Positions 17,148-22,685 of a DNA stretch of 23,050 nucleotides are shown here, piece by piece. This DNA is from an uncultured Hippea sp. (GTDB taxonomy: Bacteria; Campylobacterota_A; Desulfurellia; JAADFJ01). The stretch covers positions 1 to 23,050 of the forward strand of contig CAJVZA010000025.1 of the NCBI GenBank assembly GCA_913009315.1. The letters run 5' to 3'. The notes below the pieces were generated by a model that made no database searches, was not told where the DNA came from, and saw only the letters and a program-made list of their open reading frames with translations. The position numbers and the translations under genes are program-made. How positions within the stretch are numbered: position 1 is the first letter of the stretch; each line of letters opens with the position of its first letter.

Positions 17148-17261
17148 TTTTATCGGCTTAACGCTTTTCAACTCAAGTTATCGATATAAATTCGAATCAT
17201 TCGGATTTAAAAAATCGAAAAATATCAACTAATTCAAATAATTAAAAAAATGCGGCATTAT

Positions 17262-17285
17262 GAGACCACTGCACAGTAAACAAAT
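17262..17285. repeat. Orphan end of the palindromic repeat family, copy D
   Basis: GAGACCACTGCACAG and the next bases match the left end of copy B (about 19 of 24 positions) and are preceded by ATTAT, the same kind of flank. No matching right end is found downstream. The sequence passes directly into a different, larger hairpin and then A/T-rich DNA, so this marks a likely breakpoint at the left edge of the acquired region. Confidence 0.6.
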
Positions 17286-17294
17286 TCACAGCTT

Positions 17295-17386
17295 TTTATG
17301 AGGTTTTCTATAGACAAGGCAAACTTCTGAAAAATTAACGGGTTAATTCAAAGAAGTTTAACGAAGTATATGGGAAACCTCATAAA
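17295..17386. repeat. Long imperfect hairpin, about 33 base pairs
   Basis: The outer arms tttatgaggttttctata (17295-17312) and tatgggaaacctcataaa (17369-17386) pair over 18 positions, allowing a few G-T pairs. After an asymmetric internal loop, aaacttct pairs with agaagttt. After a second small loop, aattaac pairs with gttaatt around a tiny gg loop. No T-tract follows, so this is not an ordinary terminator. It is unrelated in sequence to the MITE family. It may be the core of another mobile repeat or a structured RNA. Confidence 0.75.
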
Positions 17387-17516
17387 GCCCGCGAAGTTCG
17401 CAACCCATCTACTTGAACAAGTGACTGATTTAGGGTATATTAAGAGTTATTGGATTAACCGTTCAAAAGGGATTCTTCATATATCAAGAAAGCAATTGAT
17501 AAAATCAGGTATTTAA
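17370..17516 (+). CDS. Possible 48-aa protein, unrecognised
   Basis: A short frame from ATG 17370 to TAA 17514-17516, starting inside the 3' arm of the long hairpin. The product is basic, with about 48 residues opening MGNLIKPAKFATHLLEQ and closing ISRKQLIKSGI, and has balanced amino-acid use. It resembles a piece of a DNA-binding protein but I recognise no family. No clear Shine-Dalgarno precedes the ATG, and its ribosome site would be inside the hairpin. It could be a real small protein, the surviving part of a mobile-element gene, or chance. Confidence 0.3.
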   Translation: MGNLIKPAKFATHLLEQVTDLGYIKSYWINRSKGILHISRKQLIKSGI

Positions 17517-17758
17517 TAGATGGTTTTTTGAATAAATTTGAATAAAAGGGAATGGTAAAATGATGATAAAAGAAATATATCAACAATTGCGTTTATCCCT
17601 CCAATTGGGTGGTATGATAACAAGGGATATATACAAATGTTCTGCCCAATGCAAAAACAGTATTACAATCAAAAAAATAGGAAAAAATGTGAATAACAAA
17701 TTAATAAAAACTGTTGAATTAATTTTTACGAACAACTTTATTGTGGTATATTTGTAAT
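17517..17758. other. A/T-rich leader in front of the methyltransferase cluster
   Basis: Together with 17148-17294 this is the only large gap before the defence genes. An open frame of 65 codons (17560-17757) has a GGGAA upstream but no domain and is probably chance. TTTACG (17725-17730) and TATATT (17747-17752), 16 bp apart, could be a promoter; transcription would then begin almost at the ATG 17759, giving a nearly leaderless mRNA. At about 17197-17217 a small inverted repeat (aaattcgaat / attcggattt) is visible without a T-tract. Confidence 0.4.
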
Positions 17759-18994
17759 ATGGATGAATTTTACAAAATACCATCACCAACGCAAGAACTG
17801 TTTAATAATAAGGTCGAACTACTTCCTTCTGTTACTGAACTTTTTGAATTTGAATTAGCTTATCTAGAATATAAAACTCTTGATGAAAAAGAATACCTTG
17901 CTAGAACTGCCTATGCTAAAACATTTGAAGGCAAAGAAAGTTTACATTTTTTAAGATATTCGGAAATACCGGAGGAAGTTAGTAAAAACAGAACATCAAC
18001 GGCAAATTCTTATTTTAAAAACGGACTTTTTTCAACGGGTTATGCAACTCATAGTCTATTCCCCTATCGTGGAAAGTTTCACCCTCAATTAATAAAAGCA
18101 CTAATAAATATTCTTGGAATAAAAAAGGGCGAAACAATTCTTGATCCAATGGCAGGAAGTGGAACCACAAATATAGAAGCAGCATTGCTCGGTATTAATT
18201 CTTATGCAATAGATGTTAGTCCGTTTTGTCAAATGATGATTCAAACAAAATACGATGCTTTAAACATTGATATGAATATTTTAAACAAAATTGAACTTGA
18301 TGAGAATAAATTGTTTGATTTCTATTCTCGGAAAAATATTTTAAAAAAGATTGAGAAAATAGATTACGGCAAAAAAGAAATTTATGAATTGGTACTTCTT
18401 GCCTATCTTGATGCATTAGGATATTCGAAGCGTGTTGTTCGCTCAAATCATAAACAATTATTCAATAAAGTTCTTAATCGTTATATTGAAACCGTAAAAG
18501 CTTTATTGATGAATAAATATTTCAATAATAAAACATTAGGAGAAGTTACTATTTTAAATAATTCAGATGCTTTGAATATTGAATTACCTGAAAATTCCAT
18601 TGACGGAATAATTACTTCACCACCATATTCTTTTGCAATAGATTATGTTGAAAATGACAAAGACCAGTTGGAATATCTCGGATATGACACGAATAAACTT
18701 AAAGAAAATTTAATCGGTTTAAAAGGTAAGACCAAATCAGAGAAATTAGAAATTTATTTCAATGATATGGATAAATTTTTAAGCGAATCTTCACGAGTTT
18801 TAAAGAAAAATAAATTCCTTGTTGTAATAATAGGTTCTAACACTAATCAAACGGGAGGTGTTAGACTGGAACAGAAAGTAATTAATTCAGCTAAGAAACA
18901 CAGTTTAGATTTGGTAAAAAGTATATTAAAACCTATCAAAGGAATGAGAAACACGATGAAAGAAGAATACATTTTAATATTTGAAAGGAAATAG
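17759..18994 (+). CDS. DNA methyltransferase, TSPPY type (putative N4-cytosine or N6-adenine)
   Basis: A 411-aa SAM-dependent DNA methyltransferase. SAM-binding motif X is suggested by FPYRGKFHPQLIKAL, motif I is LDPMAGSGTTNIEA (about 127-140), and catalytic motif IV is TSPPYSFAIDYV (about 286). The roughly 150 residues between motifs I and IV would hold target recognition. SPPY rather than DPPY is classically linked with N4-cytosine methylation but does not prove it. The upstream in-frame TTG 17741 would add 6 residues; ATG 17759 is preferred. It is first of four closely packed genes, with a 1-bp gap to the next. Codon use is strongly A/T-biased compared with the housekeeping genes, pointing to transfer. 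It probably protects host DNA from the nuclease encoded next. Confidence 0.85.
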   Translation: MDEFYKIPSPTQELFNNKVELLPSVTELFEFELAYLEYKTLDEKEYLARTAYAKTFEGKESLHFLRYSEIPEEVSKNRTSTANSYFKNGLFSTGYATHSLFPYRGKFHPQLIKALINILGIKKGETILDPMAGSGTTNIEAALLGINSYAIDVSPFCQMMIQTKYDALNIDMNILNKIELDENKLFDFYSRKNILKKIEKIDYGKKEIYELVLLAYLDALGYSKRVVRSNHKQLFNKVLNRYIETVKALLMNKYFNNKTLGEVTILNNSDALNIELPENSIDGIITSPPYSFAIDYVENDKDQLEYLGYDTNKLKENLIGLKGKTKSEKLEIYFNDMDKFLSESSRVLKKNKFLVVIIGSNTNQTGGVRLEQKVINSAKKHSLDLVKSILKPIKGMRNTMKEEYILIFERK

Positions 18995-18995
18995 T

Positions 18996-19976
18996 ATGAT
19001 AAAAACGACAGAAGATAAATTTCAAACCGTCATTAAAAAGAATACATTTTATTTTTTTAATCCTAAATTTGAAGAAGATTATGAAGGGTATGTTAATTCT
19101 CTTAAAGAAACTTTGCTTAATGTAAAAAATAGAATTGAGACAGAAGGATTAAAAAAAGAAATATTTGAAGATTTAATATCTGAAAAGGAAAACGGATTGA
19201 GGGCTTTATTAGCTCTAACAGGTTTTTCAAATGAATACCTCAAACGACTGACTACAATAATTAGAATAGTTGATATTCCAGAATTAAATAATCTTGTTTA
19301 TAAAGATAAATGGTATGATGAGCCAAATCCTAATAATATTCAAGAATGGTCAGACAACAAAATAATAAATCTAATAAAGAAAAATAAATATTTTAGAAAA
19401 GGAATTGTTAACATCTTCTTTGAAGGAGCTTCAATTCCATTTCTTGCCGATACAATCCCTTTATTTGAGTTGAAAAAGTTAAGTATTTCAAAGTTGAAAT
19501 TTGAAATACCCGAAATGATTGATACATTAATTCGTTATAAAGAAAAAGGTAGTTATTCAGGCAAAAAAAGTAACAATCCGGAGATTGTTGTTGAAGAAAT
19601 ATTAAAATCTCTTGATATTACTTGGGAAGCGGGTGACTTAACGGAGTTAATAAATAACGCCCCCGATAACAAAAGAACAATGGATTTTATAATTCCAAAC
19701 AAAGAAAATCCAATAATTATTGCCGAAAGTTCGTTTTTAGCCACAACTTCATCAGGACAAGGAGACAAATCTAAAACTGAAATATCTATTGATACATTAA
19801 TAAAAGAACATTACCCTAATGCTACTTTTATTGGCTTTATCGATGGAATTGGTTGGTATGTCCGTAAAGGTGATTTAAAAAGGATGGTTACAGCCTATGA
19901 AGATGTTTTTACTTTTCACAAAGACGAATTAAAACGATTTGAAAAATTATTAATTGAAAAGGTCATTAAGAAATGA
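18996..19976 (+). CDS. Putative type II restriction endonuclease (PD-(D/E)xK-like, DpnII/MboI-type guess)
   Basis: A 326-aa protein directly after the methyltransferase. The C-terminal third carries a plausible nuclease core: MDFIIPNKENPIIIAESSF, with D near 230 and E near 244, followed by SGQGDKSKTEISIDTLIKEHYP. This D-x(n)-E-x-S layout resembles a PD-(D/E)xK site in which the usual Lys is replaced, with K near 258 possibly filling in. Some type II enzymes have E-x-N variants, so a variant is not disqualifying. A helical N-terminal region of about 190 residues has no recognised domain. AAGGAA lies 6 nt before ATG 18996. The stop overlaps the next start by 4 bp (ATGA). The call rests on position plus this motif; a different DNA-binding role is possible. 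Confidence 0.6.
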   Translation: MIKTTEDKFQTVIKKNTFYFFNPKFEEDYEGYVNSLKETLLNVKNRIETEGLKKEIFEDLISEKENGLRALLALTGFSNEYLKRLTTIIRIVDIPELNNLVYKDKWYDEPNPNNIQEWSDNKIINLIKKNKYFRKGIVNIFFEGASIPFLADTIPLFELKKLSISKLKFEIPEMIDTLIRYKEKGSYSGKKSNNPEIVVEEILKSLDITWEAGDLTELINNAPDNKRTMDFIIPNKENPIIIAESSFLATTSSGQGDKSKTEISIDTLIKEHYPNATFIGFIDGIGWYVRKGDLKRMVTAYEDVFTFHKDELKRFEKLLIEKVIKK

Positions 19977-21631
19977 GCAAAATAGAATTTGAAATAAAGG
20001 GAATAGGAAACTTGATTAAGGGAAATAAACTTTTTGTTCCACCATATCAACGTTCTTTTGCTTGGAAGGAATTACAAGTATCACAATTACTTGATGATAT
20101 AGATAACAATTTAAGTGAAGAAGAATACTTTTTAGGAACAATAGTCTTATCTAAGGAAGAAAATAGTAAACTTGAAATTATTGATGGGCAACAACGAATT
20201 GCAACAATAGTTATATTTTTTGCTGCTTTAAAAATTTTTTTAGATGATCAGAAAGCTATGGAAACAATCCAAACTGATTATTTAAGTGAATATGATATGA
20301 GAGATAAAGATAATATTCCAAAACTGGAATTAAACCTTCAAGATAACGAGTTTTTTAAGAGTTTTATAATTGATTCATATAAAAGTAAAGAAATAAAAAA
20401 AGAATCTCATAAGAGAATAAAGGATGCTTTTGAGCTTTCGGGGGAAAAAATTAAGAAATTACTTTCTCAAAATAATGATAATATAAATATCTTATATGAT
20501 TGGAGAGAGTTTATTAATGAAAAATTGCAATCTGTTATTATTACTGTACCTACTGATGCAAATGCTTTTACAATTTTTGAAACATTAAATGACAGGGGAT
20601 TAGAATTAGCACAAATAGATTTGTTAAAAAACTATTTATATAGTAAAGCGGGAATAAAAAGATTAGAAGAAGCACAAAGTTCATGGCTTGAACTTATAGC
20701 AAAAATAGAAGAAGAGAGTTTAACTTTGACATATATAAAGCACTATTGGGCATCAATTAATGGGTTTATTAGAGTAAAAAATAAAGAACTATATAATGAA
20801 ATAAAGAATAAAAAAAGAACATCTACTGAAGTAATTGCCTTTATTGGCGATCTAAAAAATGATGTAGATAGATATAAGGCGATTTTAAATCATAATTCAG
20901 CATTTTGGAACGACTATGATAATAAATGTAGAGAATTCATAGAAACTTTAAATTACTTTAGCTTAGAGCAATATAGACCTCTGTTAATATCAATATTAAA
21001 AAATTTTACAAATGATGAAGTAGCTAACTCATTGAAATTAATACTATCTTGGCTCGTAAGAAACCTTATAACAGGGAGAATGGGAGGAGGGGCTTTAGAG
21101 CAAGCTTATGCTAATAAAGCTAAAGAGATTTCAGATGGTAATGTTAAAGACGCAAAAAATTTAAAGGAAGCTCTTAAGAAGTTAATTCCAAGTGATGAGG
21201 AATTTAAACAAGAATTTGAAATTGCAACTGTTAGTAAACATAAATTTGCAAGATATTATTTAAGTGCTATTGAAAATTATCATAGGGGCAAAGGAAATCC
21301 TGAATTGTTAGTAAATACAAATCCTGATTCTATAAATTTAGAGCATATTTTACCTGAAAAACCAGGTAATAATTGGTCTAACTTTAAAGAAGAAGATGTA
21401 AGAACATATGTGAAAAGAATTGGGAATTTAACGTTAATGAAAACAAAAGAAAATAATGATTTCAAAAGTTCTGCCTTTCATATAAAAAAAGAAAAATTTA
21501 AAGAGTCTGCGTTATGGATAACAAAGATGATTGCTGAGAATTATGAAGAATGGAATGTAGAAAATATTAAAGACAGACAAAATAAACTTGCAGATTTAGC
21601 AGTGAAAACTTGGAGTTTAAATTTTGATTAA
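19973..21631 (+). CDS. DUF262 + DUF1524 protein, GmrSD-like (type IV-type restriction)
   Basis: A 552-aa fusion of the two halves of GmrSD. The N-terminal DUF262 domain has VPPYQRSFAW (about 22-31) and EIIDGQQRIATI (about 69-80), the ParB-like nucleotide-using motif. The middle is helical. The C-terminal DUF1524 HNH-type nuclease domain has SINLEHILPEK (His near 457), KRIGNLTLM (about 482) and a following Asn/Phe/Lys motif NNDFKSSAF. GmrSD enzymes cut DNA with modified cytosines using NTPs, and relatives act in BREX and phosphorothioation-linked defence. Key residues look intact, so it should be active. Its location inside a type II-like operon, between a putative nuclease and a second methyltransferase, is unusual. 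Start overlaps the previous stop by 4 bp; end overlaps the next gene by 8 bp. Confidence 0.88.
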   Translation: MSKIEFEIKGIGNLIKGNKLFVPPYQRSFAWKELQVSQLLDDIDNNLSEEEYFLGTIVLSKEENSKLEIIDGQQRIATIVIFFAALKIFLDDQKAMETIQTDYLSEYDMRDKDNIPKLELNLQDNEFFKSFIIDSYKSKEIKKESHKRIKDAFELSGEKIKKLLSQNNDNINILYDWREFINEKLQSVIITVPTDANAFTIFETLNDRGLELAQIDLLKNYLYSKAGIKRLEEAQSSWLELIAKIEEESLTLTYIKHYWASINGFIRVKNKELYNEIKNKKRTSTEVIAFIGDLKNDVDRYKAILNHNSAFWNDYDNKCREFIETLNYFSLEQYRPLLISILKNFTNDEVANSLKLILSWLVRNLITGRMGGGALEQAYANKAKEISDGNVKDAKNLKEALKKLIPSDEEFKQEFEIATVSKHKFARYYLSAIENYHRGKGNPELLVNTNPDSINLEHILPEKPGNNWSNFKEEDVRTYVKRIGNLTLMKTKENNDFKSSAFHIKKEKFKESALWITKMIAENYEEWNVENIKDRQNKLADLAVKTWSLNFD

Positions 21632-22685
21632 AATTATAGAAAAATATATAAACCAAATAATACGAGGCGACTGTTTGGAATTATTTAAAGATATTCCAGA
21701 CAATTCAGTAGATATGACTTTTGCCGACCCGCCATTTAATTTGAAAAAAAAATATACAAGCTATAAAGATAGCCTTGAATTTCAAGAGTACTTAAATTGG
21801 TGCGAACAATGGATATCCGAAATGGTGCGAGTAACAAAACCAACAGGCTCAATTTTTTTACATAATATTCCTAAATGGCTCACATACTACGCTACATTTT
21901 TAAACAAATTTGCTCATTTCAAACATTGGATTTCTTGGGATGCTTCAACAGCACCAATGGGAAAATCATTGCAACCAGCACATTATGGGATTTTGTTCTA
22001 CAGCAAAAAAGAAAAAGGAACAAAAATATACGAACTTCGCTATCCGCATAAAAGAGATAGAAAACAAGGATATTTACTAAAAGATTATGGAGGTAAAAAA
22101 GATAAATTACATCCATTTGGACCTTTGGTTTCAGATGTTTGGACAGATATTTACCGAATAAAACATAATAAAAATAGGGACCCGCATCCTTGCCAACTAC
22201 CTACACATCTATTAGACAGATTGATTTTATTATCGACTGATGAAAATAATATTATTTTGGACCCATTTTCTGGTACTGGAACAACAGCCATTTCAGCTAA
22301 AAGATTAGGGCGAAAATATATAGGTTTTGAATTGGACAAAGAGTATGTAGAAATCTCAAAACGAAAATTGGAAGTAGTGAAACCCAATTATAAGCTCGGT
22401 GAAAATTGGGTTAGCTTTTATTTGAATGATATAATTACAATAAGAAACAATGATTGGGATAGTTTGAAAAAATATTTTGTAGTTCCAGAACCAATGAGAA
22501 CAATAGATTTTAACAAAACAAAACTTACTGATAAAAAATTAATTCCAAAAGAAAAAGAAGTTATTTACAATATAAATAATATTTGTGAAATTGAAAAACC
22601 GAAAAGGAATGGGAATAAAATTGAAAAAATAAAAATAGAAGAAACTGAAAGAAATATTGAGAATAAAAGAACAATAGTTTTATGA
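21624..22685 (+). CDS. Beta-class DNA methyltransferase (putative N6-adenine)
   Basis: A 353-aa site-specific DNA methyltransferase with beta-class order: catalytic motif IV FADPPFNLKKKY near residue 34, target-recognition region, then motif X-like HPCQLPTHLLDRLI and motif I ILDPFSGTGTTAISAKRLG near 212, followed by YIGFELDKEYVEISKRKL. DPPF is typical of N6-adenine enzymes. The C-terminal 90 or so residues are an extra, Lys- and Asn-rich tail. The start is TTG 21624, overlapping the DUF262 gene, with GGAG 8 nt upstream; no ATG occurs before the conserved motif. It differs in class from the first methyltransferase of the cluster, so the pair may modify different strands of one asymmetric site, or different sites. 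Confidence 0.88.
   Translation: MIKIIEKYINQIIRGDCLELFKDIPDNSVDMTFADPPFNLKKKYTSYKDSLEFQEYLNWCEQWISEMVRVTKPTGSIFLHNIPKWLTYYATFLNKFAHFKHWISWDASTAPMGKSLQPAHYGILFYSKKEKGTKIYELRYPHKRDRKQGYLLKDYGGKKDKLHPFGPLVSDVWTDIYRIKHNKNRDPHPCQLPTHLLDRLILLSTDENNIILDPFSGTGTTAISAKRLGRKYIGFELDKEYVEISKRKLEVVKPNYKLGENWVSFYLNDIITIRNNDWDSLKKYFVVPEPMRTIDFNKTKLTDKKLIPKEKEVIYNINNICEIEKPKRNGNKIEKIKIEETERNIENKRTIVL

What the first reader, a model, noticed from the sequence alone, without database searches (positions are those of the whole stretch)
17759..22685. Four-gene modification/restriction cluster combining two methyltransferase classes, a nuclease-like protein and a GmrSD-like protein
The genes are separated by 1 bp or overlap by 4-8 bp, so they form one unit. 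Type II systems with two methyltransferases are known, and GmrSD is a known type IV enzyme that attacks modified DNA. A unit in which a GmrSD-like protein sits between a putative type II nuclease and a second methyltransferase is not a standard layout I recognise. It could be a two-layer defence: one nuclease cuts unmodified DNA while the GmrSD-like enzyme cuts phage DNA with foreign modifications. Alternatively, the DUF262 protein could be a partner or sensor of the modification pair.
Basis: partly seen in the sequence, partly recalled or inferred. Interest (0 to 1): 0.8.

Follow-up and report, generated by a model that had tools for sequence, protein, structure and literature searches.

The report
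GmrSD-like nuclease inside Type II RM operon
A bacterial restriction-modification operon (two DNA methylases and a DNA-cutting enzyme) has a second, different type of anti-phage nuclease gene slotted between its parts; the same slot is used in several distant bacterial lineages, so one operon may protect against both unmodified and chemically disguised phage DNA.

Summary
At 17759-22685 four co-directional genes, 1 bp apart or overlapping by 4 and 8 bp, encode M1 (SPPY-type DNA methyltransferase), R (PD-(D/E)XK-type nuclease), G (GmrSD-like, DUF262+DUF1524) and M2 (beta-class DPPF methyltransferase).

Comparison separates a core from an add-on. R+M2 is the core: it is found across many phyla and in T4-like phages, often with no M1 in the genome. 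M1 is common. G is a minority accessory, seen whole, broken or as a relic in 9 of 102 R-bearing loci, plus one G-M2 contig. It always lies exactly at the R/M2 junction. The slot G proteins form one clade (100/96 support), apart from solitary relatives. All surveyed homologues of 41% identity or more sit in the slot; the nearest outside it (38-39%) are solitary.

G is lost repeatedly: a relic, frameshifted and truncated copies, and close relatives whose junction equals the window's operon with G cut out at a 6-bp microhomology.

Best reading: a Type II restriction-modification operon carrying an embedded Type IV-like enzyme, giving two layers of defence. That layout is published for Type I RM (TgvAB, RloF), Hma, BREX and Dnd; I found no report for Type II. 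Substrate, recognition site and interaction of G with the methylases are untested here.

The parts
17759..18994 (+). M1: DNA methyltransferase, motif I (DPMAGSGT) before motif IV (TSPPY); probably N4-cytosine or N6-adenine, specificity unknown
   Evidence: Pfam UPF0020/N6_N4_Mtase, PADLOC MTase_II; ATG 17759, alternative TTG 17741; present in 81 of 102 R-bearing loci
18996..19976 (+). R: Type II restriction endonuclease; helical N-terminal part plus C-terminal PD-(D/E)XK-like domain (conserved D230, E244, K258 of the 326-aa protein)
   Evidence: PF04556 DpnII 24.5 bits (cut-off 23), 42 of 43 members match at E<=0.01; model closest to BstEII, Z 10.5 over 252 residues; invariant columns
19973..21631 (+). 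G: GmrSD-family protein, DUF262 (NTPase/sensor) + DUF1524 (His-Me finger nuclease), all signature residues intact
   Evidence: Pfam GmrSD_N/GmrSD_C, PADLOC HEC-06 584.8 bits; D71GQQR75, F202xxxN206, E457H458, N485, N494 invariant in 29 homologues; model closest to DndI Z 27.0, SspE Z 23.5, BrxU Z 13.0
21624..22685 (+). M2: beta-class DNA methyltransferase (ADPPF before DPFSGTGT), constant partner of R
   Evidence: Pfam N6_N4_Mtase 174.6 bits; nearest solved relatives are adenine-type methyltransferases such as MboIIA and CcrM; follows R in nearly all loci, also in genomes without M1
19973..19976 (+). ATGA overlap joining R to G (in many G-less operons the same ATGA joins R to M2)
   Evidence: junction tables
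19982..19987 (+). ATAGAA: left copy of the 6-bp microhomology at the G boundaries (codons 4-5 of G)
21636..21641 (+). ATAGAA: right copy (codons 5-6 of M2); joining the flanks here gives the M2 start of the G-less relatives L002, L003, L005, L048
   Evidence: 77/85, 73/85, 68/85 and 73/85 identities to the joined flanks

Best explanation
A Type II restriction-modification operon with an embedded GmrSD-family nuclease. Shown: R and M2 are the core, M1 is an optional second methyltransferase, and G belongs to one clade of DUF262-DUF1524 proteins with intact catalytic residues that was found only at the R/M2 junction. Inferred: M2 (with M1) methylates amino groups of adenine or cytosine at R's site and so protects the cell. 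R cuts phage DNA lacking that mark. G uses its DUF262 domain to bind and hydrolyse NTP and to detect modified phage bases, such as C5-substituted cytosines, that would hide sites from R, and its DUF1524 His-Me domain nicks or cuts that DNA. Host m6A/m4C marks do not trigger it. Sitting inside the operon, G is co-expressed and co-transferred with the RM genes, and is easily lost when not selected.
For: Architecture and intact motifs of G. PADLOC HEC-06 match of 585 bits; HEC-06 proteins are reported to act on their own (PMC11411939). The same arrangement, a GmrSD-type gene embedded in an RM operon with proven action on hypermodified phages, is TgvAB in a Type I RM (PMC11411939). BrxU complements BREX, cuts 5mC/5hmC/glc-5hmC DNA and tolerates host N6mA (PMC8565348). 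The slot clade is monophyletic (100/96, all bootstraps) and confined to the slot among about 980 genomes searched with G plus IMG/VR. Solitary sister proteins suggest that the family can work without this RM. DndB is absent from seven genomes that carry slot G, against phosphorothioate sensing.
Against: No substrate, site or phage phenotype is known. The fold of G is nearer to the self-modification readers DndI and SspE than to the Type IV enzyme BrxU. Confinement of the clade to one RM slot is more than an independent enzyme needs. Most operons do without G, and several copies are broken, so its benefit is at best conditional. Co-transcription is inferred from spacing only.
Confidence: 0.58

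Rival explanations
1. Methylation-coupled reader. G senses the methyl marks that M1/M2 put on host DNA, as SspE and DndI sense phosphorothioate, and this switches its NTPase and nickase state. G is then a second effector of the same modification pair.
For: Best structural matches are DndI (Z 27.0, 524 residues) and SspE (Z 23.5), well above BrxU (Z 13.0). Every slot locus long enough to show its neighbours has M2 next to G and M1 upstream; none of the 21 loci without M1 has G. Among G-bearing operons the G tree agrees with the M2 tree.
Against: The absence of G from loci without M1 is not significant (Fisher p = 0.20). PADLOC places G with HEC-06, reported to work alone. The sister proteins are solitary. 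L008 and L258 share M1 and G but not R.
Confidence: 0.2
2. Hitchhiker. G is an independent defence gene that entered the operon once by chance and persists because flanking RM homology spreads it; it has no functional link to R or M2.
For: Scattered presence: 8 changes on the R tree, no better than shuffled labels. Seamless ends with microhomology. Frequent decay: relic in L081, frameshift in L004, stop after DGQQR in L008, R-G fusion in L088.
Against: A neutral passenger should not stay intact in six divergent operons (41-64% identity to the window's G) with all catalytic residues invariant, nor be confined to one junction.
Confidence: 0.17
3. Back-up or suicide function. G answers phage anti-restriction or loss of methylation by damaging DNA when R is blocked.
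For: Other two-in-one RM islands exist (DarTG2 inside a Type I RM, PMC12255303); G overlaps R by ATGA, which suggests translational coupling.
Against: No sensor of R or of phage inhibitors is apparent, and characterised GmrSD homologues cut modified DNA directly.
Confidence: 0.05

Closest known systems
TgvAB embedded in the Type I RM of Vibrio cholerae VPI-2 (PMC11411939); RloF between hsdS and hsdR in Campylobacter (cited there and in PMC4619093)
   Same: GmrSD-family gene(s) seated between the genes of a restriction-modification operon; TgvAB acts on hypermodified Tevenvirinae
   Different: Host operon is Type I (hsdRMS) and TgvAB is a two-protein system; here the operon is Type II and G is a single protein at the R/M2 junction
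HEC-06 (PADLOC; Hma-embedded candidate)
   Same: G matches the HEC-06 profile over its full length (585 bits); single-gene DUF262-DUF1524
   Different: Those were found embedded in Hma clusters; here the neighbours are a Type II RM and G forms its own clade
BrxU of BREX islands (PMC8565348)
   Same: Domain order, motifs, and a complementing partner system that uses N6-adenine methylation
   Different: Lower structural similarity (Z 13.0); it is part of a BREX island rather than an overlapping gene inside a Type II RM operon
DndI / SspE phosphorothioate-sensing nickases (PMC11662687)
   Same: Closest solved folds (Z 27.0 and 23.5); DndI is also embedded in a modification system's operon
   Different: No DndB in seven slot-G genomes; neighbours here are methyltransferases
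DpnII/BstEII-type Type II RM systems
   Same: R has a weak DpnII profile match and a BstEII-like model; nuclease plus one or two methyltransferases
   Different: No D12-class (DpnM-like) methyltransferase above cut-off; site unknown; extra GmrSD gene

Membership tests
GmrSD family (DUF262+DUF1524) | Both Pfam domains above the curated cut-off, in that order | tested here: met
   GmrSD_N 131.8 bits (cut-off 33.2), GmrSD_C 81 bits (cut-off 23)
GmrSD family (DUF262+DUF1524) | QR, DGQQR, FxxxN and His-Me finger (EHxxP, N, N) residues | tested here: met
   D71GQQR75, F202xxxN206, E457H458, N485, N494 invariant in 29 rows; Q26 nearly so; QR and EHILP read directly
GmrSD family (DUF262+DUF1524) | Fold of solved members | tested here: met
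   DndI Z 27.0, SspE Z 23.5, BrxU Z 13.0; next unrelated rows at or below 5.4
Type IV restriction enzyme | Cuts DNA because it carries a foreign modification, with NTP | not testable with these tools
   needs phage and biochemical assays
HEC-06 | PADLOC profile match over the full length | tested here: met
   PDLC04157, 584.8 bits, residues 1-548
SspE/DndI phosphorothioate-sensing systems | Phosphorothioate modification genes in the host | tested here: not met
   DndB family PF14072 absent from 7 slot-G genomes, positive in controls; Ssp genes were not searched and the genomes are incomplete
Type II RM system | Stand-alone PD-(D/E)XK-type nuclease gene paired with stand-alone DNA methyltransferase gene(s) | tested here: met
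   R and M2 adjacent in nearly all loci; model matches Type II enzymes, best BstEII
DpnII family RM | D12-class methyltransferase partner and GATC specificity | tested here: inconclusive
   R passes PF04556 narrowly and only at its C-terminus; neither M matches D12 above cut-off; site counts did not single out GATC
Type I RM with embedded GmrSD (TgvAB/RloF type) | hsdR, hsdM, hsdS around the GmrSD gene | tested here: not met
   neighbours are M1, R, M2 with no hsd genes

The most novel reading that the evidence does not exclude
The slot clade of G is a methylation-reading partner of M1/M2, a base-methylation counterpart of phosphorothioate-sensing SspE/DndI: the host's own m6A/m4C pattern licenses or restrains G, so one modification pair feeds two different nucleases.
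Probability: 0.17. Interest if true: 0.78.

Novelty: new variant of a known kind. Interest (0 to 1): 0.46.

Why it matters
Embedding of GmrSD-type genes in Type I RM, Hma, BREX and Dnd operons is published. The papers found here report none for a Type II operon, and none show a GmrSD clade confined to one gene junction across phyla. It suggests selection, not mere island clustering, for pairing protection against unmodified DNA with attack on modified DNA. It also gives a clean comparative system: matched operons with G, without G, and with G just deleted. If G proves to read the operon's own methyl marks, it would be a base-methylation analogue of SspE/DndI.

Tried and rejected
Chance neighbourhood: rejected by recurrence in the same slot. 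Obligatory four-gene system: rejected, since most R-M2 operons lack G and many lack M1 genome-wide. G travelling independently of the RM genes: simple pairwise identities suggested it, but AU tests do not reject agreement of R (p 0.13) or M1 (p 0.39) with the G grouping, so I do not claim it. Recognition site from palindrome avoidance: inconclusive and confounded by composition. Phosphorothioate sensing: no DndB in seven genomes. Plasmids and named phages searched with R: no match. Sequence search of solved structures with R: no match. Single-protein scan of IMG/VR with G: none; the alignment scan found one more slot copy. Rfam: only two tRNAs. Metagenome contigs and REBASE: not available.
Full report
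OBSERVATION. The cluster is GC-poor (26-30%) against about 40% for the housekeeping genes upstream. It lies on contig C25 of a 1.74-Mb genome that carries G once.

WHAT EACH GENE IS. M1 is a methyltransferase with motif I before motif IV (TSPPY), matching UPF0020/N6_N4_Mtase. M2 is a beta-order methyltransferase (DPPF then DPFSGTGT; 174.6 bits), related among solved proteins to MboIIA and CcrM. R passes the Pfam DpnII cut-off narrowly at its C-terminus (24.5 against 23); 42 of 43 family members match it at E<=0.01. Its AlphaFold model (mean pLDDT 77) is closest to the Type II enzyme BstEII (Z 10.5, 252 residues), with other Type II enzymes further down the list. G has GmrSD_N and GmrSD_C well above cut-off and matches PADLOC HEC-06 at 585 bits over its full length. 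Its signature residues are invariant in 29 homologues. Its model (mean pLDDT 88) matches DndI (Z 27.0), SspE (23.5) and BrxU (13.0).

CORE AND ACCESSORY. A scan of 84,980 species genomes with R found 167 relatives; 80 loci were read. The constant pair is R-M2. M1 is next to R in 81 of 102 loci examined. In most genomes with R-M2 but no adjacent M1, no close M1 exists elsewhere. So M2 can serve R alone, and M1 is optional; what M1 adds is unknown. R-M2 alone is also carried by viruses: beside head genes in L087, and between RegA/clamp-loader and DNA polymerase genes of T4-like contigs L300 and L302.

THE SLOT. G lies between R and M2, or next to whichever of them the contig shows, in the window, L004 (contig of a Zambryskibacteria MAG), L008 and L258 (Cloacimonadota), L019 (Bdellovibrio MAG), L044 (Nitrospinota), L062 (Bacteroidales; contig ends after G), L146 (same class as the host; contig starts just before G) and one viral contig (L088/L271). 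L081 (Atribacteria) holds a relic: about 30 N-terminal and 58 C-terminal residues. Several of these are short contigs of metagenome bins, so lineage labels may be wrong for some. L019 (64 kb), L258 (57 kb), L044 (24 kb) and the window (23 kb) are the safest.

IS G SPECIFIC TO THE SLOT? G was searched in 25 genomes of the host phylum, 395 Bacteroidota, 286 of the L004 phylum, 193 of the L019 phylum and 77 of the L044 phylum. GmrSD-like proteins are common, but every hit of 41% identity or more was in the slot. The next best (38-39%, G1142 and G1299) are solitary, and the ten Bacteroidota hits that I inspected have no R or M2 of this family beside them. In a maximum-likelihood tree the seven slot G proteins long enough to use form one clade (100/96, all bootstrap trees), sister to the solitary ones.

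GAIN AND LOSS. On the R tree G needs 8 changes (at least 6 forced by strong branches), on the M1 tree 8 (at least 5), on the M2 tree 6 (at least 4). Loss is directly seen: the L081 relic, a frameshift near the start of G in L004, a stop just after DGQQR in L008, and a fused, truncated copy in L088. In the window's close G-less relatives L002, L003, L005 and L048, M2 begins ATGAG(C/T)AAAAT(A/T)GA, as G does in the window and L004. About 85 other G-less operons do not; L007 is a partial case. Joining the window's flanks at the ATAGAA shared by the starts of G and M2 gives 68-77 of 85 identities to these junctions. This fits microhomology-mediated deletion of G; insertion at the same bases is not excluded. 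L008 and L258 share M1 (91%) and G (87%), but their R proteins are only 66% alike, so R was exchanged in one of them. Tests do not reject agreement of the G grouping with R (p 0.13) or M1 (p 0.39) among G-bearing operons, and M2 agrees. An old four-gene operon that often loses G, and a G that re-enters the slot, therefore both remain possible.

HOW IT PROBABLY WORKS. Inferred: M2 with M1 marks the host; R destroys unmarked DNA; G destroys DNA whose foreign modification hides it from R. The closest proven precedents are TgvAB, embedded in a Type I RM operon and active on hypermodified phages (PMC11411939), and BrxU, which cuts DNA with modified cytosines and tolerates host N6-methyladenine beside BREX (PMC8565348). 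This would let G coexist with amino-methylating M1 and M2. The main rival is that G reads the operon's own methylation, as DndI and SspE read phosphorothioate (PMC11662687). G's fold is nearer to these, but DndB is absent from seven slot-G genomes, and HEC-06 proteins are reported to act alone.

NOVELTY. GmrSD homologues near RM genes are well known, Type I most often (PMC4619093); embedding is published for Type I, Hma, BREX and Dnd. In the papers searched I found no report of a GmrSD gene inside a Type II operon or of a clade confined to one junction. REBASE, subscription papers and the Payne et al. 2024 preprint on embedded defences could not be checked. I file it as a new variant of a known kind.

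Noticed in passing
L300:1108-3031, L302:3675-5598 (and L301): T4-like viral contigs carry an R-M2 pair (R 50-51%, M2 63% identity) between RegA/clamp-loader genes and DNA polymerase; L302 also has a separate DNA methyltransferase and an HNH endonuclease gene. A complete Type II RM pair in a T4-like replication-gene region is unusual.
   Followed up: partly
L087:5938-7861: R-M2 pair beside portal, head protease and major head protein genes on a viral contig.
   Followed up: partly
L088:4776-8625 and L271:1-1977 (one IMG/VR contig of 61,666 bases): M1 and an R fused in frame to the N-terminal part of G followed by HPDLF-type repeats on one strand; a second G (at least 320 residues) directly followed by M2 on the other, with other methyltransferase genes between.
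   Followed up: partly
L008 and L258: Two Cloacimonadota operons next to hslVU-like genes share M1 (91%) and G (87%) but not R (66%), a clear case of R exchange within an operon.
   Followed up: partly
L027, L028, L032, L045, L049, L053, L059, L067, L068, L075, L077: R-M2 with no close M1 found anywhere in the genome, so M1's role in the larger operon is unexplained.
   Followed up: partly
L063:1514-4415: Between M1 and R lie a transposase-like gene and two other frames, showing that the M1/R junction also takes insertions.
   Followed up: no
window 17150-17740: About 0.6 kb of GC-poor, apparently non-coding DNA between the upstream genes and M1, possibly remnants of the insertion that brought the cluster.
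   Followed up: no
window (whole): CTAG is strongly under-represented (4 counted over both strands, observed/expected 0.08).
   Followed up: no
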